Shown one piece after another: positions 1 through 15,609 of a stretch of 17,579 bases of DNA; the stretch's first letter is position 1, and each line of letters opens with the position of its first letter. A model generated the notes under the pieces. That model saw only the letters and a program-made list of their open reading frames with translations, did not search any database and was not told where the DNA came from. Origin of the DNA: an uncultured Collinsella sp. (GTDB lineage Bacteria; Actinomycetota; Coriobacteriia; Coriobacteriales; Coriobacteriaceae); the NCBI GenBank assembly GCA_900556365.1, contig USOG01000013.1:1-17579 (forward strand). The letters run 5' to 3'. Made by a program: the position numbers and the translations under genes.

Positions 1-258
1 ATCTCGGCTGGCTGCATCATCAAGGGCACCGTGCGCAACTCGATCCTGTCGCGCGGCGTTGTGGTCGAGGAAGGCGCCTCGGTGACCAACTCGATCATCA
101 ACCAGAGCTGCATCATCAAGAGCGGCGCCCGCGTCGAGAACGCCATCCTGGACAAGAACAACGTGGTTCCCACCAACACCGAGCTTCGCGGTACGCCCGA
201 GAACATCCTGGTGCTGGGAAAGGCCCCGTTAACTTCCGACACCACCATCGTACGTTAA
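1..258 (+). CDS. glgD: Glucose-1-phosphate adenylyltransferase, GlgD-type subunit (3' end only)
   Basis: Only the last 85 codons are in the window; the frame is open from base 1 and stops with TAA at 256-258. The visible part is a left-handed beta-helix of hexapeptide repeats (for example GVVVEEGASV and SCIIKSGARV), the C-terminal domain of ADP-glucose pyrophosphorylases. The ending, with ILDK, LRGTPEN and VLGK, resembles the GlgD subunit of GlgC/GlgD pairs more than GlgC itself. That subunit assignment is from memory of the families, because the catalytic N-terminal domain is not visible. GlgC/GlgD enzymes make ADP-glucose, the donor for glycogen synthase, and the next gene is glgA, 90 bases downstream on the same strand. 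This supports a glycogen-synthesis operon. The family is secure; GlgD versus GlgC is less so. Confidence 0.8.
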   Translation: MSAGCIIKGTVRNSILSRGVVVEEGASVTNSIINQSCIIKSGARVENAILDKNNVVPTNTELRGTPENILVLGKAPLTSDTTIVR

Positions 259-324: not shown

Positions 325-348
325 TCGAATTGCAACATGGGAGACAAT

Positions 349-2718
349 ATGGCAGATTCCAGCAAAAAGATGCAGATCGTGTTTGCCTCGGCCGAGTGCG
401 CACCGTTTGTAAAGACCGGTGGTCTGGGCGACGTGGCGGGCTCGCTGCCTGCGGCGCTTGTGCGCGCCGGCGCCGAAGTCATCGTGATGGTGCCCAAGTA
501 CGCCACCATCAAGGACGAGTACAAGGCGCAAATGGAGCACTTCTCCGACTTTTACGTGAGCCTGGGCTGGCGCAATGAGTACTGCGGGCTCGAGAAGCTC
601 GAGCACGACGGCGTTACCTATATGTTCATCGACAACGAGCGCTACTTTGCGCGCGACTATCCGTATGGCTTCTTTGACGACGGCGAGCGTTTTGCGTTCT
701 TCTCCAAGGCCATCACCGAGAGCCTGCAGCACCTGCCGGCCGGCTTTGAGTGCGACATCCTGCACTGCAACGACTGGCAGACGGCACTGGCGCCCGTGTT
801 TTTGCGCGAGTTCTACCAGGGCCTGCCGCTGTACGACCGCGTCAAGACCGTGTTCTCGATCCACAACGTGGCGTTCCAGGGCCAGTTTAGCGACACCGTG
901 ATGGAGGACATCCTTGGTGTGGCGCATATTCCCGCTGCCGCCTCGCAGCTGCGTTGCGACGCCTGCAGCGTCAACTACATGCTGGGCGCGCTGCGCTATG
1001 CCGACGCCATTACCACGGTGAGCCCCACCTATGCCAACGAAATCCAGACGCCCGAGTTTGGCGAGGGCCTGGACGGTGTGCTGCGCGAGCGCTCCTACGC
1101 GCTGCAGGGCATTTTGAATGGCATCGACGTCGCGGGCTTTGACCCGGCGACCGACAAGCGCATTGCCGCCAACTACACCGTCGAGGACCGCTCCGGCAAG
1201 GCCGTGTGCAAGGCCAAGCTGCAGGAAGAACTGGGGCTCGAGGTTCGCGACGACCGTCCGCTCATGGTGATGGTCACGCGCCTGACGCGCCAGAAGGGCA
1301 TGGACCTGGTCATGTATGCGCTCGACCGCATCCTGGCCGGCGGCGTGCAGGTGGCGGTGCTGGGCACCGGCGACCGCGACTACGAGGACGGTCTACGCTA
1401 CTTCCAGGACAAGTACCCCGGCACTATGGCCGCGCGCATCGAGTTTGACCCGGCGCTGTCGCAGCGCATGTATGCCGCCGCCGACATGTTCCTAATGCCT
1501 TCGAAGTTTGAGCCCTGCGGCCTGTCGCAGATCATCGCCATGCGCTACGGCACGCTGCCGATTGTTCGTGAGACCGGCGGCCTGAAGGATACCGTGCAGC
1601 CGTACAACGAGTTTACCGGCGAGGGCACGGGCTTTTCGTTTACCAACTTTAACGGCGACGAGATGGGCGACGCGGTATTCCGCGCGGCACGCCTGTTCTG
1701 GGACAACCGCGATGCCTGGAATCAGCTGGTCACGCAGGCCATGAGCCAGGACTTTAGCTGGACGCGCTCGGCCGACAAGTATCTGGACCTGTACTTCTTT
1801 ATGCACCCGGAGATTGAGAGGCCGGCGGCTGTTGTCGACGAGCCTGAGGCTGTTGCTGAGCCGGTGGCCGCTGAGGAACCCAAGGCCGAGGAGAAGCCGG
1901 TTGAGGCTGAGCCCGCAAAGGCCGAGCCTGAGGTGAAGGCTGAGGTTGCTCCCGCAAAGGTCGAGCCTGAGGTGAAGGTCGAGGCTACTCCTGAGGCAGC
2001 CCCCGAGGCTGAGGCTAAGCCGGCTGCGAAGCCTGCCGCCAAGAAGACCACGACCCGCAAGACGACCGCTAAGAAGGCTACGACAACCAAGGCCGCTGCC
2101 ACCAAGACAGCCGCAGCAAAGACGACCACTACCAAGGCAACGACGACGCGCAAGCGCACGACCGCCGCAGCCAAGAAGGCCGCCGAGGCCGAGGCCGCTC
2201 CCGAGGTAAAGGCCGAGACTCCAGCCGTTGAGGCCAAGCCGCCCGCCAAGCCGGCCGCCAAGCCGGCCGCCAAGGCTCCGGCCAAGACCGCTGCCAAGAA
2301 GACGACAACGACCAAGACCACTGCCGCCAAGAAGGCTACAGCTACGAAGTCGACGACCGCCAAGGCCACTGCAACGAAGGCAGCCCCCAAGGCGGCCACA
2401 AAGCCGGCCGCCAAGGTCGAGGAAACGCCTGCCGAGTCCAAGGCGGAGGCAACCGTCGAGGCCAAGCCCGCCGCCAAGACCACCACGCGCAAGCGCAGCA
2501 CTACGACCAAGAAGACCACGGCAAAGGCCGCAACTCCCAAGGCAGAGACTAAGCCCGCCGCTGCCAAAGAGGAGCCCAAGGCCGAGGTAAAGGCCGAACC
2601 CAAGGCAGAGGACAAGCCGGCGCCGAAGGCCGCAGAGGTCAATGCCGCCCCGAAGGCAGAGGCTAAGCCCGAGCCCGCCAAGGAGACCCCGGTCTCCCCC
2701 GCCGCTCCGGCAGAGTAA
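349..2718 (+). CDS. glgA: Glycogen synthase (GT5) with a long Lys/Ala/Thr-rich C-terminal tail
   Basis: This cytoplasmic enzyme transfers glucose from ADP-glucose to the non-reducing end of a growing alpha-1,4-glucan. The GT5 core spans about residues 8-484. It shows the ADP-binding KTGGL loop (K22), HCNDWQTAL, SIHNVAFQG, ILNGIDV, the VTRLTRQKG strand, and the E-x7-E region FEPCGLSQIIAMRYG (first Glu at 388). Bacterial GlgA is usually about 480 residues; this one is 789. The extra ~305 residues are a low-complexity tail of Ala, Lys, Thr, Pro and Glu with PAAK and KATTTK-like repeats. I chose ATG 349 because the purine-rich GGGAGA at 339-344 fits it. An in-frame ATG at 337 would overlap that site and lacks its own, but it cannot be excluded. 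The gene follows the glgD-type gene and probably shares its transcript. The frame reopens directly after the TAA with the same tail composition (see 2719-2778). Confidence 0.93.
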   Translation: MADSSKKMQIVFASAECAPFVKTGGLGDVAGSLPAALVRAGAEVIVMVPKYATIKDEYKAQMEHFSDFYVSLGWRNEYCGLEKLEHDGVTYMFIDNERYFARDYPYGFFDDGERFAFFSKAITESLQHLPAGFECDILHCNDWQTALAPVFLREFYQGLPLYDRVKTVFSIHNVAFQGQFSDTVMEDILGVAHIPAAASQLRCDACSVNYMLGALRYADAITTVSPTYANEIQTPEFGEGLDGVLRERSYALQGILNGIDVAGFDPATDKRIAANYTVEDRSGKAVCKAKLQEELGLEVRDDRPLMVMVTRLTRQKGMDLVMYALDRILAGGVQVAVLGTGDRDYEDGLRYFQDKYPGTMAARIEFDPALSQRMYAAADMFLMPSKFEPCGLSQIIAMRYGTLPIVRETGGLKDTVQPYNEFTGEGTGFSFTNFNGDEMGDAVFRAARLFWDNRDAWNQLVTQAMSQDFSWTRSADKYLDLYFFMHPEIERPAAVVDEPEAVAEPVAAEEPKAEEKPVEAEPAKAEPEVKAEVAPAKVEPEVKVEATPEAAPEAEAKPAAKPAAKKTTTRKTTAKKATTTKAAATKTAAAKTTTTKATTTRKRTTAAAKKAAEAEAAPEVKAETPAVEAKPPAKPAAKPAAKAPAKTAAKKTTTTKTTAAKKATATKSTTAKATATKAAPKAATKPAAKVEETPAESKAEATVEAKPAAKTTTRKRSTTTKKTTAKAATPKAETKPAAAKEEPKAEVKAEPKAEDKPAPKAAEVNAAPKAEAKPEPAKETPVSPAAPAE
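1801..2718 (+). repeat. Low-complexity coding repeat: histone H1-like tail of GlgA
   Basis: About 306 codons are dominated by Ala, Lys, Thr, Pro and Glu. An acidic Glu/Pro-rich first part (about 1830-2020) is followed by alternating basic blocks rich in AAKK, TTTK and TRKR, such as 2040-2190 and 2280-2420, separated by shorter Glu-rich blocks. At DNA level there are near-tandem units, for example AAGCCGGCCGCC repeated back to back around 2248-2271. Such tracts change length easily by slippage or recombination. The composition resembles the C-terminal tails of eukaryotic H1 and of actinobacterial histone-like proteins, and it should be disordered. The long opposite-strand open frame across this region is only a by-product of the biased codons. 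Confidence 0.85.
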
Positions 2719-2778
2719 AAGGCTCCGACCAAGAAGACCTCCGTCCGCAAGGCAACGGCCACCCGCAAGCGCCGCTAA
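2719..2778 (+). other. In-frame continuation of the glgA tail beyond its stop codon
   Basis: Immediately after the glgA TAA (2716-2718), the same frame reads KAPTKKTSVRKATATRKRR and then meets a second TAA at 2776-2778. All 19 codons have the Lys/Arg/Thr/Ala composition of the tail and end in a strongly basic RKRR. The first stop is one base from GAA, CAA or AAA. The simplest reading is a recent nonsense substitution that shortened the tail. A sequencing error or programmed readthrough are alternatives. Confidence 0.7.
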
Positions 2779-2808: not shown

Positions 2809-2843
2809 AACAAGGGGTGTCGTTCAGCGCGACACCCCTTGTT
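2809..2843 (+). terminator. Intrinsic terminator after glgA
   Basis: A perfect 14-bp stem (2809-2822 with 2830-2843) has a GGGGTGTCG core and a 7-base loop. The upstream side is A-rich and the downstream arm ends in TTGTT. The run of U after the stem is short, but the stem is very stable. It separates glgA transcription from the amylase-MalQ gene. Confidence 0.8.
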
Positions 2844-2891: not shown

Positions 2892-2952
2892 GAGCGGTTG
2901 TAGTTTATGCAACTAAAGTCCAACGATATACTAAAGAACTGTGCGTTAAGCC

Positions 2953-2970
2953 CATGGCCCGCAGGCCATG
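2953..2970 (+). promoter_or_regulatory. Leader hairpin ahead of the amylase-MalQ start
   Basis: CATGGCC (2953-2959), loop CGCA and GGCCATG (2964-2970) form a perfect 7-bp stem that ends 23 bases before ATG 2994. Both arms carry an ATG or CAT. It probably lies in the untranslated leader and may affect translation of a gene whose ribosome-binding site is otherwise weak. Confidence 0.35.
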
Positions 2971-2993
2971 ACTGTATAGAACTGGACCGTACT

Positions 2994-5900
2994 ATGAGAT
3001 TGATTCACAACAGCCGCCTACCGCAGTTTCGAACTCCGTTTGGCGCTGTGACCACTGGAACTTCCGTTGCACTCTCGGTGATTCTGGAGGATGCCGATCC
3101 CAACCAGGCAACACTCACCCTGCGCACCTGGGTCGATGAAGTCGGCGAAACCCTGATCCCGATGGAGCACGAGGGCGATGGCATTTTTACCGGCGAGCTC
3201 AAATGCGATGAACCGTGTCTTGTGTGGTACAGCTTTATCTGCAATATCGAAGGTCAGCCCGAGGTCCGCCTGGGTGCGCCGCAGGGCCGCACCGGCGGCG
3301 AAGGCGTAACCTACGACTACGCCGAGGTGCCGTCCTTCCAGATTACCGTCTACAAGCACCGCGAAACCCGCCCCACCTGGTACGAGCGTGGCATGGTCTA
3401 CCAGATCTTCCCCGACCGCTACGCCCGCGACGAGCATTGGCGCGAGCGCACAATGGCCCAACTCGAAAAACCGCGCAAGGGCATTCAGCGCCGGATGGTC
3501 GAGGACTGGAACGAGCCGCCCGTGTACGAGCGCGCCAACGACGGCTCCATCAAGACCTGGGACTTTTACGGCGGATCGCTCAAGGGCATCCAGGAAGACC
3601 TGCCCCGCATCGCCGAGCTGGGCTTTACGGCCATCTACCTCAACCCCATCTTTGAAGCCGCGAGCAACCATCGCTACGACACGGCCGACTACACCAAGAT
3701 CGACCCGATCCTGGGCACCGAGCAGGACTTTACCGAACTGTGCCAGGCAGCCGAGAAGCTGGGCATCTCCATCATCCTGGACGGCGTCTTCAACCACACG
3801 GGCGACGACTCGATCTATTTCAACCGCTACGGCAACTACCCCGGCGTGGGCGCCTGGCAGAGCGAGGATTCGCCGTGGCGCGATGCGTTTACCTTCCACG
3901 AGGACGGCTCGTACGACTGCTGGTGGGGGGTGGGCAACATGCCCGCCCTCAACGAGAAGTCCGAGCTGGTGCGCGAGAAGCTCCTGGGCAAGGACGGCGT
4001 GATCCGCAAATGGCTGCGCGCCGGCGCCCATGGTTGGCGCCTGGACGTCGCTGACGAGCTTTCCGACGACTTCCTAACCGAAATCAAGAAGGCCGTTCTT
4101 GCCGAAAAGCCCGACGCGCTGTTGCTCGGCGAAGTCTGGGAAGACGCCTCCAACAAGATTAGTTACGGTCATCTGCGCCGATACCTGCAGGGCTCCGAGC
4201 TCGACTCTGCTATGGATTACCCCTTCCGCGACATGGTCATCGGCTTTTTGATGGGCTACAAGAACGCCTACGAGGCCGCCGAGGATATCGAGACCCTGCG
4301 CGAGAACTACCCGAGCGAGGCATTGTCCTGCGCGCTCAATCTGCTTTCGAGCCACGACCGTCCGCGCATCATCTCGGTGCTCGGCGGCGGCCCCGACGAG
4401 TCGCAGCTGCCCGAGTGCGAGCGCAGCAAATGGCGCCTGGACGAGAACGCAATGGGTCTGGCCAAGAGTCGTTTTTGGCTCGCCACGCTTATGCAGATGA
4501 CCTTCCCCGGCGTGCCTTCGATCTATTACGGCGACGAATACGGTCTGGAGGGCCTTACCGATCCGGGCAACCGCCGCACCCTGCCGACCAAGGAAGACCT
4601 GCACGACTTCGATACGCTGGCTATTGTCAAGAACGCCTCGGCCGTGCGCCGCGCGCTGCCGTTTATGATTGACGGCGAGATCAAGGCCTTCGCACTCAAT
4701 GATGAGGTGCTGGCATACAACCGCACGGGCAAGGACGGCGAGTCGGCAACGGTCATCATCAACCGCAGCCTGCGCAATTCGCACCGCGTGACGATTCCAG
4801 CGCTCGGCGAATGTGCGAGCGACGTGATCAGCGGTCACGAGTGCGAGATTCACAACGGCACGGTCACGCTCGACCTGTACCCGCTGGGCTCGTCGATCAT
4901 CTATCACCACGCCGAGCAGCGCCTGCAGGAGCCGCTCGATCACGGCGCGGGCGTCGTGTGCCACATCACCTCGGTGCCCACCGACGACGGCAAGCCCGGT
5001 ACGATCGGCGCGCCCACGCGTCGCTTTATCGACCATCTGGCCGCTATGGGCATGCGCTACTGGCAGGTTCTCCCCGTCAACCCCACGGACTTCTTCCGCT
5101 CACCTTACGCTGGTCCTTCGGCCTTTGCGGGCAATATTGACCTGCTGCCCGAGAGCCAAGAGGAGCTGGCCGCCGACTTTGAAACCTGGAAGGCCCGCGG
5201 TAGCGAAGATGCCGATCCGTTGTACACCGCGTTTAAACATCGTAATGCTGATTGGCTTGAGAAGTACTGCGTCTACATGGCCGTCAAGAAATACTTTGAG
5301 GGCGAGTCACGCCACGATTGGCCGGCAGATGTTGCGCACTACAACGAGCACCTGATTGACGACAAGCGTTTTCACGACGAGTCAGAGCTGCAGGCGTACA
5401 TGCAGTACCGCTTTGACCTGGCTTGGTGTGAGCTCATGAACTACGCGCACAAGAAGGGCATCGAGGTTATCGGCGATATCCCGATGTATGTCTCGGACGA
5501 TTCGGCAGACGCATGGAGCGAGCCCGAGAACTTCTGGCTGTCCGATACCGGCAAGGCGATTGAGATTTCCGGCGCGCCGCCCGACAACTTTGCGCCCGAG
5601 GGCCAGATGTGGGGCAACCCGACCTTCCGCTGGGACCACATGAAGGAGAATGGCTATCGCTGGTGGATGGATCGCCTGCGCCGTGCGTTCTCGCTCTACG
5701 ACCGCGTGCGCCTGGATCACTTCCTGGGCTTCCACAGCTACTTTAGTATCCCCGCGGGCAAGGCTTGCGCCGACGGGCGTTGGCTGGCAGGCCCGGGCAA
5801 GGACCTGTTCCAGACCGCCTATGACGAGCTGGGGCCACTCAACTTTATTGCCGAAGATCTGGGCTACCTGACGCCCGGCGTTCGCGCCATGGCTTCGACC

Positions 5901-6290
5901 TGTGGTTTCCCCGGCATGGACGTGCTGGAGTTTAGCGATTACGACGTCCGTTGCGGTGTGCATCCCACGCCGAGCAAGATTCTGTACACCTCAACGCACG
6001 ACACGTCGACGCTCGCCGGTTGGTGCACGCGCTCCTTTGCGGGCGGCGACGAGCCGAGCGGTGTTGAGTTTGCGGCCAAGCTGATGAGCGACGCACTGGC
6101 AAGCGACGCTCCCCTCGTGATGATGCCGCTGCAGGATGTTCTGGGGCTGGGCGACGACGCGCGCATGAACGTTCCGGGCGTTGCCACGGGCAACTGGACC
6201 TGGCAGGCTGACGAGGCGGACATTGCAGCCGCCGAGGGCAAAACTGCGCAGCTCCTGCGCAACAGCCATAGATTCTGGGGCGAGGCGTGA
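2994..6290 (+). CDS. Fused GH13 alpha-glucan hydrolase / GH77 4-alpha-glucanotransferase (MalQ)
   Basis: The 1098-residue protein has two catalytic halves and no signal peptide, so it should work in the cytoplasm on maltodextrin or glycogen. Residues 1-130 form a beta-sandwich of the neopullulanase/cyclomaltodextrinase N-domain kind (HNSRLPQFRTPFGAV). The GH13 barrel follows with DGVFNH (263-268), GWRLDVADE (nucleophile D351), LLGEVWE (acid/base E380) and SSHD (D455). From about residue 650 a GH77 domain begins (CHITSVP, H657), with GDIPMYV, VRLDHFLGF (nucleophile D908), IAEDLG (E954) and STHDTST (D1003). GH77 usually has DHFRGF and THDN; the Leu and Thr here are variants, but the carboxylates are intact. 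I chose ATG 2994 because family homology begins directly there; an in-frame ATG at 2907 adds 29 unrelated residues. The gene probably cuts and rearranges alpha-1,4-glucans made by the neighbouring glycogen enzymes or imported. The exact GH13 subfamily is uncertain. Confidence 0.93.
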   Translation: MRLIHNSRLPQFRTPFGAVTTGTSVALSVILEDADPNQATLTLRTWVDEVGETLIPMEHEGDGIFTGELKCDEPCLVWYSFICNIEGQPEVRLGAPQGRTGGEGVTYDYAEVPSFQITVYKHRETRPTWYERGMVYQIFPDRYARDEHWRERTMAQLEKPRKGIQRRMVEDWNEPPVYERANDGSIKTWDFYGGSLKGIQEDLPRIAELGFTAIYLNPIFEAASNHRYDTADYTKIDPILGTEQDFTELCQAAEKLGISIILDGVFNHTGDDSIYFNRYGNYPGVGAWQSEDSPWRDAFTFHEDGSYDCWWGVGNMPALNEKSELVREKLLGKDGVIRKWLRAGAHGWRLDVADELSDDFLTEIKKAVLAEKPDALLLGEVWEDASNKISYGHLRRYLQGSELDSAMDYPFRDMVIGFLMGYKNAYEAAEDIETLRENYPSEALSCALNLLSSHDRPRIISVLGGGPDESQLPECERSKWRLDENAMGLAKSRFWLATLMQMTFPGVPSIYYGDEYGLEGLTDPGNRRTLPTKEDLHDFDTLAIVKNASAVRRALPFMIDGEIKAFALNDEVLAYNRTGKDGESATVIINRSLRNSHRVTIPALGECASDVISGHECEIHNGTVTLDLYPLGSSIIYHHAEQRLQEPLDHGAGVVCHITSVPTDDGKPGTIGAPTRRFIDHLAAMGMRYWQVLPVNPTDFFRSPYAGPSAFAGNIDLLPESQEELAADFETWKARGSEDADPLYTAFKHRNADWLEKYCVYMAVKKYFEGESRHDWPADVAHYNEHLIDDKRFHDESELQAYMQYRFDLAWCELMNYAHKKGIEVIGDIPMYVSDDSADAWSEPENFWLSDTGKAIEISGAPPDNFAPEGQMWGNPTFRWDHMKENGYRWWMDRLRRAFSLYDRVRLDHFLGFHSYFSIPAGKACADGRWLAGPGKDLFQTAYDELGPLNFIAEDLGYLTPGVRAMASTCGFPGMDVLEFSDYDVRCGVHPTPSKILYTSTHDTSTLAGWCTRSFAGGDEPSGVEFAAKLMSDALASDAPLVMMPLQDVLGLGDDARMNVPGVATGNWTWQADEADIAAAEGKTAQLLRNSHRFWGEA

Positions 6291-6756: not shown

Positions 6757-8157
6757 TTACTTGCGGACCAGCCTGGCGCAGAAGTGGCCGTCGTAGGAGT
6801 CGGCGTTTACCGGCACGCTTTGGAAGAGGCCTCGATCGTTCTGGCGTACGGATACGAGCTTCTTGGCCTGGTCGAACTCGGGGAGTTGCAGAATCTGTGC
6901 CTCGGAAAGCGGTGCCACGCTAAAGCCGGCACCCTCGGGAGAAGCAAGGAAAGCATCCACCACCTGCGTGTTCTCCTCGTCGAAGACCGAACACGTTGCA
7001 TAGATGAGCTCGCCGCCGGCAGCCACGCGCGCGGCAGCTTCCTTGAGCATCGTCAGCTGCAGTTTGGGCAGCTCAACCGTCACATCATTCTCGGTTAGGC
7101 GCCACGGAATCTCGGGATGACGACGCATGGTTCCGGTGCCCGAGCACGGCGCATCGATAAAGACCGTGTCGAATTTAACCGGCTCGCCAAGCATGGCATC
7201 AAACGATGTGAGCACCTCATCAAGCTCGCAGGCATCGCCCGAAACCGTACGAACGCCCTGAATACCGGCCTTATGCAGGCGCGCGAGATTCAGATCGCAC
7301 TTGCGATCATGCAGATCGAGCGCCGTATGCTGACGCTCATAGCCCGCACGCTTGGCCTGGCACATCATCACATAGGTCTTGGTGCCACGACCGGCACCAA
7401 TCTCAAGGCAGCTACCAGGGCGCGTGGCAGCCGTGGCGATAAGCTGCGCGTTGAGATCAGACGCCACCGCGGCAGCACGCTCAAACACACCCGAAGCAAC
7501 GGTAACCTGGGCATCAACCGGGGCATGGCAGCCCGGAAAGACAGGCGCGACGAGCTGCGAGATATACGGATCGGGCTTGGTCGCAAAGGCGTTCTCATGC
7601 AGGGCCAGCGGCGCGGGGGCCAGATTGCCGGCAAAGTTAAGCGCACCCTCTGGCGTGTCGAACGATGCCATAATGCGAGCGCACAGCCAACGCGGCAGAC
7701 CCATCAGGCGCGACAGACGAACCAAGCGTCGCTCAGACTCATCCACATCGGACGCCGTTGCAAAGTCCTCAACATTGTCAGCAACCTTATGCAGTACAGC
7801 ATTGGCCAAGCCCGCGGCGGACTTAGCACCGCAGCGAACCAGCTCAACACCTTGACTTACGGCAACGCGGCCAGGCGTATGCAGATAGAGCATCTCGAAG
7901 GCCGAGATACGAAGCGCCATGCGAACACGCGGCGCAACCTTCTTGGGCTTATCAAGAAACTGATCGAGCAGCTCGTCCAAAATACCCTGCGTGGCGGCCA
8001 CGCCCAGCGCCAAGCGGGCTGCAAAAGCGGAATCGCGCTGGTCAATAGCCTTGGCCGATGCGCGAGAGGACAGCACGTCGCGCGCATACATGCCGCGGCG
8101 ATCGGCCTCCATCAGCACATCGAGTGCAAGCTTGCGCGCGGGAGACAGCTTGCTCAT
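6757..8157 (-). CDS. rsmB: 16S rRNA m5C methyltransferase, RsmB/Sun family
   Basis: This SAM-dependent enzyme methylates a cytosine of 16S rRNA (C967 in E. coli numbering). The 466-residue protein has an N-terminal NusB-like RNA-binding domain (about 5-140), a linker domain, and a Rossmann methyltransferase domain from about 245. Motif I is LEIGAGRG (251-258), motif IV is DAPCSGTG (C338) and motif VI is ATCS (catalytic-type C389). Both cysteines of the RNA m5C mechanism are present. The start at 8157 is supported because its ATG overlaps the fmt stop as ATGA (8154-8157), a sign of translational coupling. A GGGGTGG stretch lies just upstream. An in-frame ATG 48 bases further up would lie inside fmt and adds no family sequence. 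Length is near the usual 430-450. Assignment to RsmB rather than another NOP/Sun member rests on the NusB domain and the fmt linkage. Confidence 0.93.
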   Translation of the reverse strand: MSKLSPARKLALDVLMEADRRGMYARDVLSSRASAKAIDQRDSAFAARLALGVAATQGILDELLDQFLDKPKKVAPRVRMALRISAFEMLYLHTPGRVAVSQGVELVRCGAKSAAGLANAVLHKVADNVEDFATASDVDESERRLVRLSRLMGLPRWLCARIMASFDTPEGALNFAGNLAPAPLALHENAFATKPDPYISQLVAPVFPGCHAPVDAQVTVASGVFERAAAVASDLNAQLIATAATRPGSCLEIGAGRGTKTYVMMCQAKRAGYERQHTALDLHDRKCDLNLARLHKAGIQGVRTVSGDACELDEVLTSFDAMLGEPVKFDTVFIDAPCSGTGTMRRHPEIPWRLTENDVTVELPKLQLTMLKEAAARVAAGGELIYATCSVFDEENTQVVDAFLASPEGAGFSVAPLSEAQILQLPEFDQAKKLVSVRQNDRGLFQSVPVNADSYDGHFCARLVRK

Positions 8158-9074
8158 GACAAACCACCCCAGATAAGATCGGCGCCTTGCAGCCCAGCAG
8201 CCCAAGCAGAAGCGGCCATGGCACGCTTGCCATCGGGCTTAACATCGAGCAGTTCAACCGCACCATCGGAAAGGCCAAGGAAAACACGCTTGTTCTTGAC
8301 AGCAATAGCGCCCTCGCCAAGCGACACATCAGCCGGCGCAGCATCGAGCACGCGCACGGTCTTGCCGGCAATCACGCAACGAGCGGGAGCGGTATCGGAC
8401 GAGGCCAGCACATGACGCACGCAATCGAGCGCTGCCATCTGAGGATCCAGGCGCATCTCCTGCTTAGAAATCTTAGCAGCATGAGTGACGAGTGACTCAT
8501 CCTGTTCGGTCCAAACGGCGGTGCCGTCGGCGAGGGAAGGAAGCGTATCAGCCAGCAGCTTGCCGCCCAGCTCGCCAAGCTCCATAGTCAGCGCCTCAGC
8601 ATGCTTACCGGCAACCGACGTGGAAGCCCGGGCACAATAAGCACCAGTATCCACGCCATGCCCAATGCGCATAATGGAAACGCCAGCAACCTCATCACCA
8701 GCGAGAATCGCACGCTGAATAGGAGCAGCCCCACGCCAACGCGGCAGCAAGGACGCATGAACATTCACAATGCCGAGCGGCGCCATATGCAGCACCTCAT
8801 CAGGCAAAATGCAGCCATAGGCAGCCACACAGAAAATATCGGCCTGGGCAGCTTGGAGCGCCTCAACAACCTCCGGCGTCATACGATTAGCCTCAATAAC
8901 CGGCAGACCAAGCTCAAGCGCCTTGGCCTTAACAGGAGAAGGCTCGAGCCTCTTGCCACGCCCACGAACAGCATCAGGACGAGTAACAACAAGCGCAATC
9001 TCATTCCCAGCGTCAACAAGCGAAGTCAGCGAAGGCACCGCAAAATCAGGCGTACCCATAAACACAATACGCAT
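8154..9074 (-). CDS. fmt: Methionyl-tRNA formyltransferase
   Basis: Fmt uses 10-formyl-tetrahydrofolate to formylate Met-tRNAfMet for translation initiation. The 306-residue protein is close to the usual ~310. The N-terminal domain begins RIVFMGTPDFAVPSL. The catalytic triad is visible as N104 and H106 in NVHASLLPRWRG and D142 in GVDTGA, as in the E. coli enzyme. THAAKISKQE (about 197-206) marks the junction to the C-terminal tRNA-binding domain. The start has GGGGAG about 9 bases upstream. The stop overlaps rsmB by four bases. Functionally it pairs with def on the same strand, which removes the formyl group, although an unusual 326-bp gap separates the two. Confidence 0.95.
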   Translation of the reverse strand: MRIVFMGTPDFAVPSLTSLVDAGNEIALVVTRPDAVRGRGKRLEPSPVKAKALELGLPVIEANRMTPEVVEALQAAQADIFCVAAYGCILPDEVLHMAPLGIVNVHASLLPRWRGAAPIQRAILAGDEVAGVSIMRIGHGVDTGAYCARASTSVAGKHAEALTMELGELGGKLLADTLPSLADGTAVWTEQDESLVTHAAKISKQEMRLDPQMAALDCVRHVLASSDTAPARCVIAGKTVRVLDAAPADVSLGEGAIAVKNKRVFLGLSDGAVELLDVKPDGKRAMAASAWAAGLQGADLIWGGLS

Positions 9075-9108
9075 AAAGAACGTCTCCCCTCAACCAAAGC
9101 CGAGACGG

Positions 9109-9201
9109 CTACAAATAACAGCGGAAAGCCAAGTACCCAGCCCATCCGCAATAACAATTCAACAAGAACAAATATACCCAAAAACAAAGAAAGAGCCGCA
9201 T
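9109..9201 (-). CDS. Possible 30-residue hydrophobic small protein
   Basis: ATG 9201 opens a 30-codon frame that begins MRLFLCFWVY and continues through a mostly hydrophobic stretch rich in Phe, Leu, Cys and Tyr, enough for one membrane span. A GAGAGG lies 9 bases upstream. The frame ends 34 bases before the fmt start. It could be a small membrane protein, a leader peptide for fmt, or simply a chance frame in T-rich DNA, since T-rich codons encode hydrophobic residues. I recognise no family. Confidence 0.2.
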   Translation of the reverse strand: MRLFLCFWVYLFLLNCYCGWAGYLAFRCYL

Positions 9202-9290
9202 AAAAGCAGCCCTCTCAACAAAGCACCTATCAGCGAAGACGCCCTTCCCTGGCCCGACGGCACCCGGGCGAACCGAGCCAGAACAACGCA

Positions 9291-9392
9291 GTCCCCGGTG
9301 CTGAGCGCCCACATATCGTCCCGCGCGCAGTTTCGCAGCGAAGCGAGAATGTTTGAGCACGGGATGATATGTGGGCGCTCAGCACCGGGGAC
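9291..9392. repeat. 102-bp palindromic element between def and fmt
   Basis: Arms of 33 bases (9291-9323 and 9360-9392) are complementary except at one position (9318/9365), which is a G-U wobble in plus-strand RNA. The outer ends are GTCCCC/GGGGAC. The 36-base centre has a smaller potential hairpin (CGC..GCG near 9334-9345). One arm ends 8 bases after the def stop codon. There is no T-run and no coding capacity. The size and perfection fit a non-autonomous palindromic repeat (REP- or MITE-like) better than a terminator. Confidence 0.7.
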
Positions 9393-9400
9393 GGTGGGAC

Positions 9401-9937
9401 CTATTCCGTCTCGCCCGGTCGAGCGCCGCGGGCCAGGGCGTCCTGGTACTCCTTGACTGCCTTGAGCCTCTGCATGGGCTTAAGGCGCTCGAACATGGTG
9501 TTGCCGTGCAGGTGATCGATCTCGTGCTGCAGGCAAACACAGAACAGGTCGCCCGTGGCCTCGTAGCGAATCAGGTTGGCGTCCAAGTCGTACGCCTCGA
9601 CGACGACATGGTCGGGACGCTCGATCTCGCAGCTGATGCCAGGGATGGAAAGGCAGCCCTCGCTAAACGGCACCAGATGGTCGCTCTGCTCAACAATGAC
9701 AGGATTGATGAGCACGTACGGATCGTAGTCGCTCTTGTCGCTGTAGTCGCAGTCGATGGTGACGAGCTGAATGAGCTCGCCGATCTGCGGAGCAGCCAGG
9801 CCGCAACCGCCGTTCTCGAACATCATCTTCTTCATCTTCTCGGCAAGTGCCTCAATCGCCGGAGTGATCTCCTCGATGACGGCGCACTCCTGGCGCAGAC
9901 GAGGGTCGGGCGACAGTACGATTCCGTTGGCTTCCAT
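9401..9937 (-). CDS. def: Peptide deformylase
   Basis: This metalloenzyme removes the N-formyl group from nascent proteins. All three family motifs are present: GCGLAAPQ (residues 44-51), EGCLS with metal ligand C95, and HEIDH with ligands H138 and H142 and catalytic E139. The length of 178 is normal. Two ATGs lie six bases apart. AAAGGA abuts the first (9943) but sits 5 bases before the second (9937), so I use 9937. The gene starts 18 bases after the priA stop, which indicates one transcript. The def-fmt pairing is functional, linking formylation and deformylation of the initiator methionine. Confidence 0.95.
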   Translation of the reverse strand: MEANGIVLSPDPRLRQECAVIEEITPAIEALAEKMKKMMFENGGCGLAAPQIGELIQLVTIDCDYSDKSDYDPYVLINPVIVEQSDHLVPFSEGCLSIPGISCEIERPDHVVVEAYDLDANLIRYEATGDLFCVCLQHEIDHLHGNTMFERLKPMQRLKAVKEYQDALARGARPGETE

Positions 9938-9955
9938 GGCCATCCTTTCGGGTTG

Positions 9956-12409
9956 TTACATCAAATCATAGGCGTCGACGTCAACGCTCACGCTCACGCC
10001 GCGCACGGAGCCCACCTCTTTGAGGCAGGCGTCGATATCATCAGAGACATGGTACCCCACGGGCGACTTCACAAGCAGATGGAAGCGGTAACGGTCCTTG
10101 GCTCTCTCGATTACACACGAAGCAGGACCCAGCACCTGCGGCACCGCGCTCCCCGCCCGCAAAAAGTCGGGTGCGGCGGCATGCCAGCGGCGCTTAAGTA
10201 GCTTTGCGATGCGCCCGATGTAGTCCCGCGCGTCGTCTCGGTTCGCCGACCACACCAAGATGTTGACCAAGCGAACAAACGGCGGGTACAGCGCGTCGCG
10301 GCGCTGATCCAGGTCGTAGTCGGTAAAGATCGAGCGGTCGTGCTCAGCGACGGCGCGAATGACCGGGTCATCGGGCAGGTAGGTCTGGATGATGACCTCG
10401 CCGGGGCGATCGCCGCGTCCGGCACGGCCGGCGACTTGCTCAAGCAAATCGTAGGCGCGCTCCCCCGCGCGGAAGTCCGGCAGCTTGAGGGCAAAGTCGG
10501 CATTGACCACGCCCACGAGTGTGACCTCGGGAAAGTCGAGGCCCTTTGCGATCATTTGGGTACCCAGTAACACGGCACAATCGGACGCATCGAACTGCTC
10601 GAGCAACTTTTTGTGCGCATCCTTACCACGCGTGGAATCGGCATCCATGCGAATGATGGCGACGTCCTCGGGCAGCATTTGGTGCAGTGCGTCCTCGATC
10701 TGCTGAGTGCCCAGACCCATTTTTGCCAGGTAGCGACTGCCACATTTGGGACAGCGACTCGTGGGCGCGGGATACGGCTGCACACGCCAAGACGAACCGC
10801 AGGTGTGACACTGCAGCGTGTGCGTGCGCTCGTGGTACGTAAGCGCGGTAGAGCAGTGGTTGCAGGTGGGCACGCAGCCGCATTCGCGGCACATCAGGAA
10901 CGGCGCAAAGCCACGGCGGTTATGCAGCAGCACGGCCTTCTCGCGGCGCTCGACCACTCGCTCCAAGCCCTCCATCAAGGGTTTTGAGAACATTGAGCGG
11001 CTGCCGTGCGAGAACTCGCGACGCAGGTCGGCAATGCGAACCGTGGGCAGAACCGCGTGCCCCGGGCGCTCGGGCATCTCGACACGCGTCCAGGTGGCAC
11101 CGTTATACGTGCCACGGCGGCAGCGGTCGAGGGCCTCGGCAGAAGGCGTGGCGGAACCCAGCACGAGCGGGCAGCGATAGCGCCGCGCCATCTCGGCCGC
11201 CACCTCGCGCGCATGGTAGCGCGGGCTGGAACCCTGCTTGTAGCTGGTCTCGTGCTCCTCGTCGAGGATGATGAGACCTAAATCGTTGAGCGGGCAAAAG
11301 AGCGCCGAGCGGGCGCCGACGACCACACGCGCGGCACCGCTGGCGACCATGTCCCACTGATCCAAGCGCTCGCCGGCCGAAAGGCGTGAGTGGAAGACCG
11401 CGACCGTCTCACCGAAGCGCGAGCGGAAGCGGCCGACGGTCTGGGCCGTCAGCGAGATCTCGGGCACCAACACGCAAGCCGAACGGCCGGCTGCGAGCAC
11501 GCGCTCGATGGCGGAGAGATAAACCTCGGTTTTGCCGGAGCCGGTGACGCCGTCGACCAGCACCACGTCGCCATGGGCGTCTAGACTGGCGCGCTCAATC
11601 TGCGCGAGTGCCTGCTGCTGGCCGTTGGTAAGGGAGACCGGCGCCTTGCCGCTTGCCGAAGACAGCGTGGTCTGCTCGCTGCAGCCACGCCACGCACGGC
11701 GCTCCTCCACCACCACGACACCGCGTTTTTCAAGCGACTTGATGGTCGCCGACATGCTGTTATAGAGCAGGTTGAGGTCGCGCGTCGTAACCGGGCCGCA
11801 CTGGAGTGCCTCGATGAGCTGGCGCTGGCGAACGGCGGTCTTGGGCGGCGTATAGTCAAAACCTTCGGGCGTGAGCATGACCCAGCGGTTTTGGATAGGC
11901 TTGACGGCGGGACGTTCAACCGTCCACACGCCGTCGTCGCCTTTGACCACGCGCGGGCTTCCACCCGGGGGCAAGAACAGGCGCAGGCACTCGGAAAGCG
12001 TCGCGACATATTCGCGGCTCATCCAACGCGCGATGCGGGCGGCCTCGGCACTAAAGAGCGGCTTGCTGAGAATCGCCTCGATGGGCTTTATACGCGCGGG
12101 ATCGAGGGCGATTTTGCCTCGCAGCTCGCTTAGCTCAGACGCAATGTCGACGATATAGCCAGCGGCCGCACGGCTACCAAAGTGGACCAGGACCGTGGAT
12201 CCAATCTGCGCCTCGTTGGCAAGAGTTTCCGGGATGCCGTAGGCGAATGGCTCGGACAGCGCACGCGTCGGAATGTCCAGGACTACGCTCGCGTAGGCGG
12301 CGATGGGCTCAGGTACAGGCTCGGACTTGGCCGGGGCAACAGCAGGCTCGGGCGTGGCCGGAGCCTCCTCCGGTTCCGGCGAACCAAACAGTGACAGTTG
12401 CTCGGCCAT
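9956..12409 (-). CDS. priA: Primosomal protein N' (replication restart helicase PriA)
   Basis: PriA is a 3'-5' superfamily 2 helicase that recognises stalled forks and reloads the replisome. The 817-residue protein has the 3'-end-binding domain (about 38-150), a winged-helix region, and helicase motifs GVTGSGKT (287-294) and DEEH (383-386). A zinc-binding insert with cysteine pairs 507/510, 516/519, 534/537 and 553/556 follows, plus an extra C512, then QVAGRAGR (658-665). E. coli PriA has 732 residues. Part of the excess is a 38-residue N-terminal extension: QLSLF at residues 4-8, then a Pro/Glu/Ala-rich linker. ATG 12409 follows a GGGAGG about 10 bases upstream. No ATG, GTG or TTG occurs between codon 1 and the PriA core, so the extension is real unless translation uses a non-standard start. 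QLSLF matches the bacterial sliding-clamp-binding consensus; that function is inference. Confidence 0.95.
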   Translation of the reverse strand: MAEQLSLFGSPEPEEAPATPEPAVAPAKSEPVPEPIAAYASVVLDIPTRALSEPFAYGIPETLANEAQIGSTVLVHFGSRAAAGYIVDIASELSELRGKIALDPARIKPIEAILSKPLFSAEAARIARWMSREYVATLSECLRLFLPPGGSPRVVKGDDGVWTVERPAVKPIQNRWVMLTPEGFDYTPPKTAVRQRQLIEALQCGPVTTRDLNLLYNSMSATIKSLEKRGVVVVEERRAWRGCSEQTTLSSASGKAPVSLTNGQQQALAQIERASLDAHGDVVLVDGVTGSGKTEVYLSAIERVLAAGRSACVLVPEISLTAQTVGRFRSRFGETVAVFHSRLSAGERLDQWDMVASGAARVVVGARSALFCPLNDLGLIILDEEHETSYKQGSSPRYHAREVAAEMARRYRCPLVLGSATPSAEALDRCRRGTYNGATWTRVEMPERPGHAVLPTVRIADLRREFSHGSRSMFSKPLMEGLERVVERREKAVLLHNRRGFAPFLMCRECGCVPTCNHCSTALTYHERTHTLQCHTCGSSWRVQPYPAPTSRCPKCGSRYLAKMGLGTQQIEDALHQMLPEDVAIIRMDADSTRGKDAHKKLLEQFDASDCAVLLGTQMIAKGLDFPEVTLVGVVNADFALKLPDFRAGERAYDLLEQVAGRAGRGDRPGEVIIQTYLPDDPVIRAVAEHDRSIFTDYDLDQRRDALYPPFVRLVNILVWSANRDDARDYIGRIAKLLKRRWHAAAPDFLRAGSAVPQVLGPASCVIERAKDRYRFHLLVKSPVGYHVSDDIDACLKEVGSVRGVSVSVDVDAYDLM

Positions 12410-12440
12410 GGTCTCTGTACCTCCCATCCCATACGTCTTT

Positions 12441-12474
12441 AGAAACAAGAGCCCCGCTCGGGTGAACGGGGCTC
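12441..12474 (-). terminator. Intrinsic terminator after gltX
   Basis: Read on the minus strand, GAGCCCCG (12474-12467), a 10-base loop and CGGGGCTC (12456-12449) form an 8-bp stem followed by TTGTTTCT. It lies between the gltX stop and the priA start. priA therefore probably has its own promoter or depends on readthrough; the 40 bases left before its start give little room for one. Confidence 0.75.
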
Positions 12475-12497
12475 GGATACGTGCGTTTACGCGGCTG

Positions 12498-13973
12498 CTA
12501 CAGCGCCATCGTGCGGGCGCGGTCGATGCGCGCCAGGCAGTCGTCGCGACCAACGAGCGCCATGGTCTCGCCCAGCGGAGGGCTCACCATGTTGCCGCAG
12601 ACGGCGACGCGCACGGCCTGGAACACCACGCGCTTCTTAAGGTCCATCTGCTCGGGCAGCGGCTCAAGCGCGGCGTCGATGTTGGCAGCCGTCCACTCGT
12701 CCACGCCCTCGAGCGCGGCCTTGGCGGCGTCCAGAATGGCGCCCATGCCTTCCTTGGCCAGGCCCTTGTTAACGGACTTCTCGTCATACTCGAGCGTCTC
12801 GGCCGTAGCGAAGATGGGAGCGGCGACGGTCACGGCGTCGGCCGGCATCTTGGTGCGCGGCTTGACGATAGCGGCAAGCGCGTCGATCCAGTCCTCGCCG
12901 TACTCGACATTACCCTCGATGAGACCCGCCTCGTGCAGCTCGGGGACCATGATCTCATCGGCAAACTGGGCGTCGGACATACCGTTGATGTACTCGGCAT
13001 TGACCCAGTCGAGCTTCTTGGGGTCGAAGGTCGCCGGGTTCTTGGAGATGCGGTCGAGCGAAAACTTGCTGGCCAGGACATCGCGCGGGATGATCGTGGT
13101 CTCGCCGTCGAGCGACCAGCCGAGCAGCGCCAGGTAGTTGACGAAGGCGTCGGACAGGTAGCCGGCGTCGCGATACTCCTCCACCGAGGTGGCGCCGTGG
13201 CGCTTGGAGAGCTTTTTGCCGTCGGCGCCCAGGATCATGGAGATGTGGGCGAACGTGGGCACGGGCGCGCCGAGGGCCTCGTAGACCATGACCTGACGCG
13301 GGGTGTTGGACAGGTGGTCGTCGCCGCGGATGACATGGGTGATCTTCATCATGGCGTCGTCGACGACGGTCGCGAAGTTGTACGTGGGCGTGCCATCGGA
13401 GCGGAAGATGACAAAGTCGTCGAGCTCCTTGGCGTCGAAGGTCACCTCGCCGTGGACGGCGTCGTGGATAACGACGTCGCCGCGGTCCTCGGGCACCTTG
13501 ATGCGCAGGACGTAGGACTCGCCGGCCTCGATGCGACGGCGGGCCTCCTCGGGATCAAGATCGCGGCAACGGCGCTGATAGCCCTGGAAGGGGTCCTTGC
13601 GCTCCTGCGCGGCCTTGCGGTCGGCATCGAGCTGCTCCTTGGTGCAGAAGCAGGGATAGGCCTTGCCCTCGTCCCAAAGCTTCTGGGCGGCCTGCTTGTA
13701 CAGGTCCAGGCGCTCGGTCTGGGCGTAGGGGCCAAAATCGCCGCCCACCTCGGGACCCTCGTCCCAGTCCAGGCCCAGCCAACGCATGGCGCGCAGGATG
13801 ATCTGCGTGTTCTCGTCGGTGGAGCGGGTGGGGTCGGTGTCGTCGATGCGCAGGATGAACGTGCCGCCGTTTGCGCGGGCGAAAGCCCAGTTATAGATAG
13901 CGGTGCGGGCGCCGCCGATGTGCAGCTTGCCCGTCGGTGAGGGTGCAAAGCGGACGCGAACGTCTGATGCCAT
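12498..13973 (-). CDS. gltX: Glutamyl-tRNA synthetase
   Basis: This class I aminoacyl-tRNA synthetase charges tRNAGlu, and in bacteria lacking GlnRS also tRNAGln; which applies here cannot be told from the window. The 491-residue protein begins VRVRFAPSPTGKLHIGG, with the HIGH-type motif HIGG at 18-21. The KMSKS-type motif is KLSKR at 254-258. The zinc-binding insertion has C108-x-C110 and Y132/C136. The C-terminal half is the anticodon-binding region. ATG 13973 has GAGGAG at 6 bases spacing. An upstream in-frame ATG at 14012 adds 13 residues that are not family-like. The gene has its own terminator. Confidence 0.95.
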   Translation of the reverse strand: MASDVRVRFAPSPTGKLHIGGARTAIYNWAFARANGGTFILRIDDTDPTRSTDENTQIILRAMRWLGLDWDEGPEVGGDFGPYAQTERLDLYKQAAQKLWDEGKAYPCFCTKEQLDADRKAAQERKDPFQGYQRRCRDLDPEEARRRIEAGESYVLRIKVPEDRGDVVIHDAVHGEVTFDAKELDDFVIFRSDGTPTYNFATVVDDAMMKITHVIRGDDHLSNTPRQVMVYEALGAPVPTFAHISMILGADGKKLSKRHGATSVEEYRDAGYLSDAFVNYLALLGWSLDGETTIIPRDVLASKFSLDRISKNPATFDPKKLDWVNAEYINGMSDAQFADEIMVPELHEAGLIEGNVEYGEDWIDALAAIVKPRTKMPADAVTVAAPIFATAETLEYDEKSVNKGLAKEGMGAILDAAKAALEGVDEWTAANIDAALEPLPEQMDLKKRVVFQAVRVAVCGNMVSPPLGETMALVGRDDCLARIDRARTMAL

Positions 13974-14062
13974 GGAAATCTCCTCGATTGCAGGATGGAT
14001 GTCTAACCGCACCAGTATAAAGCATCAAAGCAACCTCCGCACAAAGGGCACCGACCTACTAC

Positions 14063-14142
14063 TCATTGGGGACAGACTTAAATGAACAGCCCTAAATTAA
14101 GAACGTCTCCAACGACTGGTCATTTAAGTCTGTCCCCAATGA
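14063..14142. repeat. 80-bp perfect palindromic element between gltX and metK
   Basis: Two exactly complementary 23-base arms (14063-14085 and 14120-14142) contain the core GGGGACAGACTTAAATGA and its complement, with a 34-base centre. Short flanking matches lie just outside (GCACC at 14048-14052 with GGTGC at 14146-14150). There is no T-run and no reading frame. It sits between two divergent genes, so it cannot be a terminator shared by both. GGGGACAGAC-type ends recall palindromic repeats mobilised by Y1 (IS200/RAYT-like) transposases. That link is from memory and no transposase is present here. Confidence 0.75.
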
Positions 14143-14157
14143 ATAGGTGCGGAAAGG

Positions 14158-14186
14158 GTGTGAATGTTTGATTTACGCGCTATGAT
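14158..14186 (+). promoter_or_regulatory. Candidate metK promoter
   Basis: TATGAT at 14181-14186 is a good -10. The -35 at 17-base spacing (14158-14163) is poor. A TTGATT at 14168-14173 is too close to serve. Transcription would start near 14193 and give a leader of about 60 bases. The start of the gltX transcript must lie on the other side of the palindrome. Confidence 0.4.
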
Positions 14187-14235
14187 GTGCCCTTGCATAG
14201 AGAGCCTGGCGGAATGGTAACGGTCGCCGGGACAC
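14187..14235 (+). promoter_or_regulatory. Foldable metK leader
   Basis: CCTGGCG (14205-14211) can pair with CGCCGGG (14225-14231), seven pairs with one G-U. GTGCCC at 14187-14192 can alternatively pair with GGG and CAC at 14229-14235, which competes for the same bases. The pairing ends 10 bases before GAAAGGA, the metK ribosome-binding site. Two competing folds next to a SAM synthetase start would suit a SAM-responsive switch. I do not recognise a known SAM aptamer here, and the assignment is speculative. Confidence 0.25.
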
Positions 14236-14253
14236 GTTTTTGAAAGGACAATC

Positions 14254-15534: not shown

Positions 15535-15571
15535 GCTTACGAGAAAAGCCACAGCCAAATAACAACGCACC

Positions 15572-15609
15572 AAAAGAAGTACCGGCCCCAACCGGTACTT
15601 CTTTTTATT
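15572..15609 (+). terminator. Strong intrinsic terminator after metK
   Basis: A perfect 14-bp stem (15572-15585 with 15592-15605, core GAAGTACCGG) has a 6-base loop and runs straight into CTTTTTATTT. It is a textbook Rho-independent terminator, 37 bases after the metK stop. Confidence 0.95.

What the first reader, a model, noticed from the sequence alone, without database searches (positions are those of the whole stretch)
1801..2718. Glycogen synthase with a ~305-residue histone H1-like tail
The GT5 catalytic fold is complete by about residue 484, where ordinary GlgA proteins end. This chain then continues with ~305 disordered residues made almost only of Ala, Lys, Thr, Pro and Glu, in alternating acidic and basic blocks. 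Such tails are known from H1 and from actinobacterial nucleoid proteins, not from glycogen synthases that I know of. It might tether GlgA to a polyanion (DNA, RNA, polyphosphate), organise glycogen granules as a condensate scaffold, or bind an acidic partner. The near-tandem DNA units suggest its length varies between strains.
Basis: partly seen in the sequence, partly recalled or inferred. Interest (0 to 1): 0.75.

Follow-up and report, generated by a model that had tools for sequence, protein, structure and literature searches.

The report
Glycogen enzymes with histone-like tails
In the gut bacterium Collinsella and its relatives, the enzyme that builds glycogen ends in a long, floppy, lysine-rich tail like that of histone H1, and its partner branching enzyme usually has one too, which suggests that glycogen may be tied to DNA or polyphosphate in these cells, although no binding has been tested.

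Summary
The tail is real. Window 337-2718 encodes a GT5 glycogen synthase (GlgA) whose fold ends near residue 489; about 300 disordered residues follow. In 55 of 55 Coriobacteriaceae GlgA ends read outside one genus (g24), a tail of 105-469 residues is present. In the nearest clade its length drifts (224-313) but lysine holds at 19.2%, and charge-swapping K/E changes are much rarer than the equivalent A/T changes, so charge looks selected.

Two corrections. The window's tail is cut short: an in-frame stop precedes a basic cap that 119 of the 120 closest proteins keep; the cap's frame still follows in the DNA (2719-2778). And the tail is not peculiar to GlgA: the branching enzyme GlgB of the same operon has its own lysine-rich tail; in 71 of 71 genomes where both were read, at least one of the two has one.

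Best explanation: the tails tether growing glycogen to a polyanion, most likely nucleoid DNA, as PhaF and AlgP tails do for PHA and polyphosphate granules. Conservation is shown; binding and positioning are inferred. Polyphosphate binding, GlgA-GlgB co-assembly and a mere disordered bristle remain open. I found no description of it in the open-access papers searched.

The parts
1..258 (+). 3' end of glgD (ADP-glucose pyrophosphorylase-like subunit), next gene upstream in the glycogen operon
   Evidence: same C-terminal sequence as the glgD of G001; that gene passes NCBIfam TIGR02092
337..1803 (+). GlgA GT5 catalytic domain, residues 1-489
   Evidence: NF001898 660 bits against cut-off 603, PF08323; starch/glycogen synthase structures align to about 486-490; last predicted helix 475-489
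1795..2715 (+). disordered lysine-rich tail (307 residues after residue 486)
   Evidence: 88.6% A/K/T/P/E; pLDDT about 30-39 for 499-793; kept in relatives
1795..2034 (+). acidic E/P/A-rich block next to the core, net -12
   Evidence: near-core 40 residues net negative in 50 of 55 Coriobacteriaceae tails
2035..2154 (+). basic block 1 (KKTTTRKTTAKK type), net +12
2275..2394 (+). basic block 2, net +10
2455..2514 (+). basic block 3 (TTTRKRSTTTKK), net +6
2716..2718 (+). in-frame TAA stop ahead of the conserved cap; relatives have a sense codon here
2719..2778 (+). remnant of the conserved basic C-terminal cap KAPTKKTSVRKATATRKRR and the old stop, untranslated in this strain unless the stop is read through or is a sequence error
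   Evidence: in-frame translation; the cap or a near copy is present in 23 of 23 other distinct clade sequences and 119 of 120 closest proteins
2809..2843 (+). strong RNA hairpin just after the old stop, probably the 3' end of the glgA transcript
   Evidence: segment 2779-2860 folds at -32.6 kcal/mol, z -5.3; no run of T follows and the terminator scan does not list it

Best explanation
GlgA of Coriobacteriaceae is an ordinary ADP-glucose glycogen synthase to which a long polyampholyte tail has been added: an acidic spacer, then lysine/threonine/alanine blocks, then (lost in this strain) an arginine/lysine cap. GlgB of the same operon carries a shorter, almost purely basic tail. The catalytic domains sit on the growing glucan; the tails most likely bind a polyanion non-specifically, above all nucleoid DNA, so that glycogen particles are held along the nucleoid, spaced, and shared between daughter cells. 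This is the job that the H1-like tails of PhaF and PhaM do for PHA granules and that of AlgP does for polyphosphate granules. The acidic spacer would keep the basic part off the enzyme or tune its affinity. Shown here: presence, predicted disorder, a charge pattern that looks selected, co-occurrence on GlgA and GlgB, likeness to known DNA-binding tails. Inferred: DNA binding, tethering, the effect on granules.
For: Tail present in 55 of 55 closed Coriobacteriaceae GlgA reads outside genus g24, 105-469 residues; the 38 such rows in a 65-row core tree are one clade, support 100/95. Charge: K<->E differences in 3.5% of aligned pairs against 14.4% for A<->T, both the same A/G change at codon position 1; polymorphic columns 17 of 81 against 72 of 118, Fisher p 2e-8; K fraction 0.192, sd 0.005. 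dN/dS core 0.044, tail 0.24, cap 0.08. In 55 of 55 of those tails (the window's not among them) the last 20 residues carry net +5 or more. GlgB of the same operon has its own basic tail (69 aa in G001), net >= +8 in 67 of 71 genomes; either enzyme tailed in 71 of 71. In codon-pattern searches of 3 and 6 genomes other K-rich ends sit mainly on nucleic-acid or ribosome-linked proteins: TopA, ribosomal L17 and L31, trigger factor, also SecE and a ferredoxin-type protein (families). The GlgA tail shares more 5-letter words with the TopA tail than shuffles do in 3 of 4 genomes. TopA lysine repeats keep that enzyme on DNA (PMC7398561, passages). [quoted passage not shown] PMC13052382, passages). E. 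coli GlgA-GFP marks glycogen and goes to the old pole, strongly in a csrA mutant and less in wild type (PMC4836754, passages).
Against: No binding or localisation data. The tail's net charge is modest (+18 in the window, +6 to +46 over the 55 Coriobacteriaceae tails) beside +55 for AlgP, because of the acidic blocks. Polyphosphate is an equally good target: PPK1 is in 14 of 14 genomes tested. GlgA tails are absent from genus g24 (4 of 4) and from 12 of 17 Atopobiaceae read, so the GlgA tail is not needed for glycogen there. The GlgB tail shares no more 5-letter words with TopA than shuffles do, and in G018 the GlgA tail does not clearly either (95 of 1000 shuffles). The window's own strain has lost the cap. 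Similar tails also occur on proteins with no DNA role, such as phosphoglycerate kinase (3 of 120 listed).
Confidence: 0.48

Rival explanations
1. The tails bind polyphosphate (or are modified by it on lysines) and link the glycogen store to the polyphosphate store or regulate GlgA by polyphosphate level.
For: PPK1 is present in 14 of 14 Coriobacteriia genomes tested, PPK2 in 4 of 14. The H1-like AlgP protein localises to polyphosphate granules (PMC9239181, passages). Mixed E/K-rich stretches resemble targets of lysine polyphosphorylation (recalled, not from a call).
Against: No direct evidence; PPK1 is common in bacteria and rings in 7 of 14 control genomes, so its presence discriminates little. 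Lysine polyphosphorylation motifs are serine-rich (recalled); these tails are Ala/Thr-rich.
Confidence: 0.17
2. The tails hold GlgA and GlgB together: the acidic spacer of GlgA pairs with the nearly purely basic GlgB tail, making an enzyme condensate on the glycogen surface.
For: GlgA tails start acidic in 50 of 55 Coriobacteriaceae while GlgB tails hold 1593 K/R against 185 D/E over 71 genomes; both genes lie in one operon.
Against: GlgB basic tails exist in genus g24 (4 of 4) and in the 10 of 12 Atopobiaceae whose GlgA has no acidic spacer, so the GlgB tail does not need it.
Confidence: 0.18
3. A lineage-specific disordered bristle of little specific function: it keeps the enzyme soluble or spaced on the granule, and composition drift in a GC-rich genome made it look H1-like.
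For: Length varies freely; genus g24 and 12 of 17 Atopobiaceae read do without it on GlgA; K/A/P-rich tails also occur on ribosomal and other proteins; this strain tolerates loss of the cap, if the stop is real.
Against: Matched-mutation test indicates that charge is kept; a cap motif of VSAARK/SVRKA type is recognisable in 40 of 55 distinct tails; alternative codons are mixed (Ala GCT/GCC/GCA/GCG 0.30/0.43/0.17/0.09 in the tail), so most of it is unlikely to be recent DNA slippage.
Confidence: 0.17

Closest known systems
PhaF / PhaM (PHA granule-nucleoid tethers)
   Same: Storage-granule proteins with a granule-binding part followed by a histone-like C-terminal part that binds DNA non-specifically and places granules on the nucleoid (PMC3574117, PMC13052382, passages); in PhaF that part is disordered without DNA.
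   Different: These are not polymerising enzymes; here the tail is on the polymerising enzyme itself, the polymer is glycogen, the tail has Thr-rich blocks and an acidic spacer, and DNA binding is untested.
AlgP (polyphosphate granule spacing, Pseudomonas)
   Same: 195-aa disordered H1-like C-terminus rich in KPAA; needed for granule number and spacing (PMC9239181, passages). One Atopobiaceae GlgA tail (G266) has 20 KPAA in 296 residues.
   [quoted passage not shown] net +55; polyphosphate granules, not glycogen.
Actinobacterial topoisomerase I lysine repeats
   Same: C-terminal degenerate K-rich repeats likened to histone H1 (PMC7398561, passages); Collinsella TopA has such a tail and the GlgA tail shares words with it beyond shuffles in 3 of 4 genomes.
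   Different: TopA acts on DNA; GlgA acts on glucan and has an acidic spacer.
Histone H1 C-terminal domain
   Same: Lys/Ala/Pro/Thr-rich disorder (recalled).
   Different: No H1 domain: Pfam finds only glycosyltransferase domains in this protein.
Ordinary bacterial GlgA and GlgB
   Same: Complete catalytic domains above curated cut-offs.
   Different: The 10 loci outside Coriobacteriia whose GlgA end was read (Clostridia, Oscillospiraceae, Weissella, Planctomycetota) end 3-18 residues after the core.

Membership tests
GT5 glycogen synthase GlgA | full-length match above the curated cut-off | tested here: met
   NF001898 660.3 bits against 603, residues 12-486; PF08323
GT5 glycogen synthase GlgA | ADP-glucose-dependent glucan elongation | not testable with these tools
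   inferred from family and operon only
PhaF/PhaM/AlgP-type granule-nucleoid tether | disordered, lysine-rich, H1-like C-terminal tail | tested here: met
   (low confidence taken as disorder)
PhaF/PhaM/AlgP-type granule-nucleoid tether | homologous granule-binding domain (phasin or AlgP N-terminus) | tested here: not met
   only glycosyltransferase domains found; so it is not a member, though it may work alike
PhaF/PhaM/AlgP-type granule-nucleoid tether | non-specific DNA binding by the tail | not testable with these tools
   no experiment
PhaF/PhaM/AlgP-type granule-nucleoid tether | tail needed for granule position or number | not testable with these tools
   no experiment
Histone H1 | globular winged-helix domain | tested here: not met
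   Pfam scan finds no such domain
Actinobacterial TopA lysine-repeat tail | K-rich degenerate repeats, basic, at the C-terminus | tested here: met
   the likeness is of tail type only, not of the enzyme

The most novel reading that the evidence does not exclude
Coriobacteriia have a glycogen-positioning system built into the biosynthetic enzymes themselves: H1-like tails on GlgA and GlgB tie each growing glycogen particle to the nucleoid (or to polyphosphate), so that the store is spread and inherited by both daughters instead of being excluded to the old pole as in E. coli.
Probability: 0.38. Interest if true: 0.78.

Novelty: new variant of a known kind. Interest (0 to 1): 0.62.

Why it matters
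Nucleoid tethers are described for PHA and polyphosphate granules; the word glycogen does not occur in the text of the organelle-positioning review looked up (PMC13052382, 0 occurrences). If these tails bind DNA, a third bacterial storage polymer would be organised by the same trick, placed on the polymerase and branching enzyme instead of on a coat protein. It would also give a testable contrast with E. coli, where GlgA-GFP and glycogen collect at the old pole (PMC4836754, passages). The natural set of tailed, cap-less and tail-less enzymes across the order is a ready experiment.

Tried and rejected
Other tail-bearing proteins by sequence search with a GlgA tail: of 6 genomes only G001 matched (its own GlgA) and G018 gave one weak hit with two stops (E 0.008); 4 of 6 gave nothing, not even their own GlgA, so the method was dropped for codon-pattern searches. 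Those find only tails with these words and are no proteome census; of the 31 places I looked at 25, several in spurious short ORFs.

Tail-only protein search (G266 KPAA-rich GlgA tail; 429 proteins, best 120 listed): 91 of 120 are primary sigma factors (hand count of the Pfam column); the other 29 include GlgA itself, DksA, S2, IF-2, a helicase and a recombinase, but also phosphoglycerate kinase (3), so H1-like extensions are not limited to nucleic-acid binders. Candidates shorter than 0.55 of the query length, such as phasins, could not appear.

Misassembly or frameshift as the source of the tail: rejected. Mostly recent DNA slippage: unlikely by codon mixture and charge test. Standalone H1-like substitute in tail-less genus g24: G218 has an ORF with a long H1-like stretch running into another sequence (weak sub-threshold match to histone-like HC2); not pursued.

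A survey of other phyla was not possible, so absence of such tails elsewhere is supported only by ten loci. Several loci were read on the wrong strand; one search replaces that table. In one search one Atopobiaceae row (G393) was labelled as Coriobacteriaceae; one search recounts without it (55). Two of those 55 (G345, with an N, and G205) look frame-disturbed and were kept. Of 57 such genomes read, 2 (G028, G264) have no closed end in the stretch I held and were left out. The 71 genomes are those for which I fetched both genes, and Atopobiaceae were partly picked for long frames, so neither is a random draw. Two Coriobacteriaceae genomes, G321 and G386 (89% and 76% complete), gave no GlgA match. 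The terminator scan gave nothing on this strand. Family names f1 = Coriobacteriaceae, f5 = Atopobiaceae and g1 = Collinsella are inferred from contigs that recur with names.

Papers: PMC9239181, PMC3574117, PMC13052382, PMC7398561, PMC4836754 were seen as passages returned by term look-up; others only as search listings. 'Not in print' rests in an open-access library only; one search found 90 papers and I saw 12 listings.

Full report
WHAT IS THERE. The window comes from a Collinsella close to C. aerofaciens: the nearest loci, 99% identical over the GlgA core, are named C. aerofaciens or Collinsella sp.; its own assembly is not held. ORF 337-2718 is a GT5 glycogen synthase: NF001898 scores 660 bits against a cut-off of 603 and ends at residue 486, solved starch/glycogen synthases align to residues 486-490 (one to 515), and in an AlphaFold2 model the last helix ends at 489 while 499-793 has pLDDT of about 30-39 (15-sequence alignment, pTM 0.63). 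The 307 residues after 486 are 88.6% A/K/T/P/E and fall into an acidic block (net -12), two strong basic blocks (+12, +10) with a mixed stretch between, a further basic block (+6) and a net-neutral end.

THE END IS MISSING. Just after the stop at 2716-2718 the same frame continues KAPTKKTSVRKATATRKRR and then stops at 2776-2778. That sequence, or a near copy, is the C-terminus of 119 of the 120 closest proteins (the exception, P0001, is the window's own) and of the 23 other distinct sequences of the clade with core identity of 94% or more. So this strain encodes a cap-less tail, unless the stop is a sequencing error or is read through. More distant Coriobacteriaceae end in versions such as TSVSAARKTTTRKKR; a VSAARK- or SVRKA-like cap is found in 40 of 55 distinct tails, and in 55 of 55 the last 20 residues carry a net charge of +5 or more. 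The window's own last 20 residues carry -2. A strong hairpin at 2809-2843 follows the old stop.

SELECTION ON THE TAIL. In 24 distinct clade sequences (window included) the tail varies from 224 to 313 residues, yet the lysine fraction is 0.192 with sd 0.005. dN/dS is 0.044 for the core and 0.24 for the aligned tail (276 pairs each), and 0.08 for the 19-residue cap (253 pairs, window left out); alignment of low-complexity sequence makes the tail value rough. A matched test is cleaner: AAG/GAG (K/E) and ACN/GCN (T/A) differ by the same A/G change at codon position 1, yet K/E pairs differ in 713 of 20,226 comparisons and A/T pairs in 4,177 of 28,967; polymorphic columns are 17 of 81 against 72 of 118 (Fisher p 2e-8). 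Columns share ancestry and the alignment is itself a guess in places, so the p-value is indicative. The simplest reading is that charge is kept and the rest is free.

DISTRIBUTION. Among 58 relatives 35 of 35 genomes of the genus have the gene, with open frames of 575-986 aa, the shortest cut by a contig end. In a class-wide draw of 396 genomes 254 have a match of any strength, among them 40 of 40 of the genus. Of 57 Coriobacteriaceae genomes read outside genus g24, 55 have a closed end and 55 of 55 carry a tail of 105-469 residues. A core tree of 65 rows (the C. aerofaciens clade thinned) puts the 38 tailed Coriobacteriaceae in one fully tailed clade (100/95); overall 5 changes of state are needed, 3 of them forced by well-supported branches. 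Genus g24 (4 of 4 read) has 7 residues and 12 of 17 Atopobiaceae read have 10-16; four Atopobiaceae and two f2 genomes have tails of their own (64-296 residues), including one with 20 KPAA motifs (G266), and one Atopobiaceae read is open-ended.

THE PARTNER. A pattern for clustered KKA/KKT codons in six genomes (31 places; 25 looked at) led to GlgB as well as to GlgA, TopA, ribosomal L17, L31 and L5, SecE, trigger factor and a ferredoxin-type protein (families, L5 by eye); several hits were in spurious ORFs. In G033 and G128 the order glgB - glgP - glgC - glgD - glgA - GH13/GH77 fusion is read directly; in G001 and G018 part of it is hidden under longer antisense ORFs in the list, and glgB was read separately. 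Families were checked for GlgB, GlgC and GlgD of G001 and GlgP of G033. The C-terminal ends of GlgC, GlgP and the fusion protein seen there, and of GlgD in G001 and G033, show no such tail. The GlgB tail is 69 aa in G001 (22 K/R, 3 D/E). In 71 genomes where I read both genes, GlgB has a basic tail (20 aa or more, net +8 or more) in 67, GlgA has a tail of 60 aa or more in 57, and either is present in 71. The 12 Atopobiaceae among them, and the one f2 genome, have the GlgB tail; 10 of the 12 lack a long GlgA tail. In this sample the GlgB tail is the more widespread of the two.

HOW IT PROBABLY WORKS. GlgA and GlgB are the enzymes that hold the growing glucan (established knowledge). A basic tail on each would give the particle many weak contacts with a polyanion. 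The best documented analogues are the tails of PhaF, PhaM and AlgP, held to bind DNA without sequence preference, which set the position or number of PHA and polyphosphate granules (passages of PMC3574117, PMC9239181, PMC13052382), and the lysine repeats of actinobacterial TopA (PMC7398561). Collinsella TopA has such a tail, and the GlgA tail shares more 5-letter words with it than shuffled tails do in 3 of 4 genomes (6, 12 and 1 of 1000 shuffles reach the count; 95 of 1000 in G018); for GlgB this is not so, while GlgA and GlgB tails share words with each other beyond shuffles in 3 of 4. In E. coli, whose GlgA is an ordinary short one (recalled), GlgA-GFP and glycogen gather at the old pole, strongly in a csrA mutant and less in wild type, which the authors link to nucleoid exclusion (PMC4836754, passages). 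Tethering would counter that. Shown: tails, predicted disorder, kept charge, pairing of GlgA with GlgB. Inferred: DNA binding, tethering, inheritance.

WHAT SPEAKS AGAINST OR LEAVES DOORS OPEN. PPK1 is present in 14 of 14 genomes tested (PPK2 in 4 of 14), so polyphosphate is an equally available polyanion. The net charge of the GlgA tail is below that of AlgP. H1-like tails also occur on unrelated enzymes such as phosphoglycerate kinase (3 of 120 listed). The GlgA tail can be absent. The acidic GlgA spacer and basic GlgB tail could instead pair with each other, though tail-less GlgA with tailed GlgB argues that this is not the general reason.

VERDICT. It is a new variant of a known kind (H1-like granule tails), on a polymer and on enzymes where I found no earlier description in the open-access library; subscription literature was not searched.

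Noticed in passing
2907-6290 (+): The gene after glgA encodes a fusion of a GH13 alpha-amylase-type domain and a GH77 4-alpha-glucanotransferase (1127 aa); best NCBIfam model NF011083 (GlgX/MalQ bifunctional) stays below its cut-off.
   Followed up: partly
L184:1581-2816 (genome G218, genus g24): A 412-aa ORF with roughly 240 residues of H1-like K/A/P sequence followed by other sequence, in a lineage whose GlgA has no tail; Pfam gives only a weak, sub-threshold match to histone H1-like HC2.
   Followed up: partly
1722-2768 (-): A 348-aa antisense ORF spans the whole tail; in G001 a 1432-aa antisense ORF lies over the glgB-glgC region. Probably a by-product of GC-rich composition.
   Followed up: no
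L152, L166, L173, L155 and L153: K/A/E-rich tails or heads on trigger factor, ribosomal L17 and L31, SecE and a 4Fe-4S ferredoxin-type protein of these genomes.
   Followed up: partly
6757-17452: Downstream genes look like rsmB, fmt, def, priA and gltX (minus strand), then metK and an L-serine ammonia-lyase (plus strand); names recalled from the translations, no family search made.
   Followed up: no
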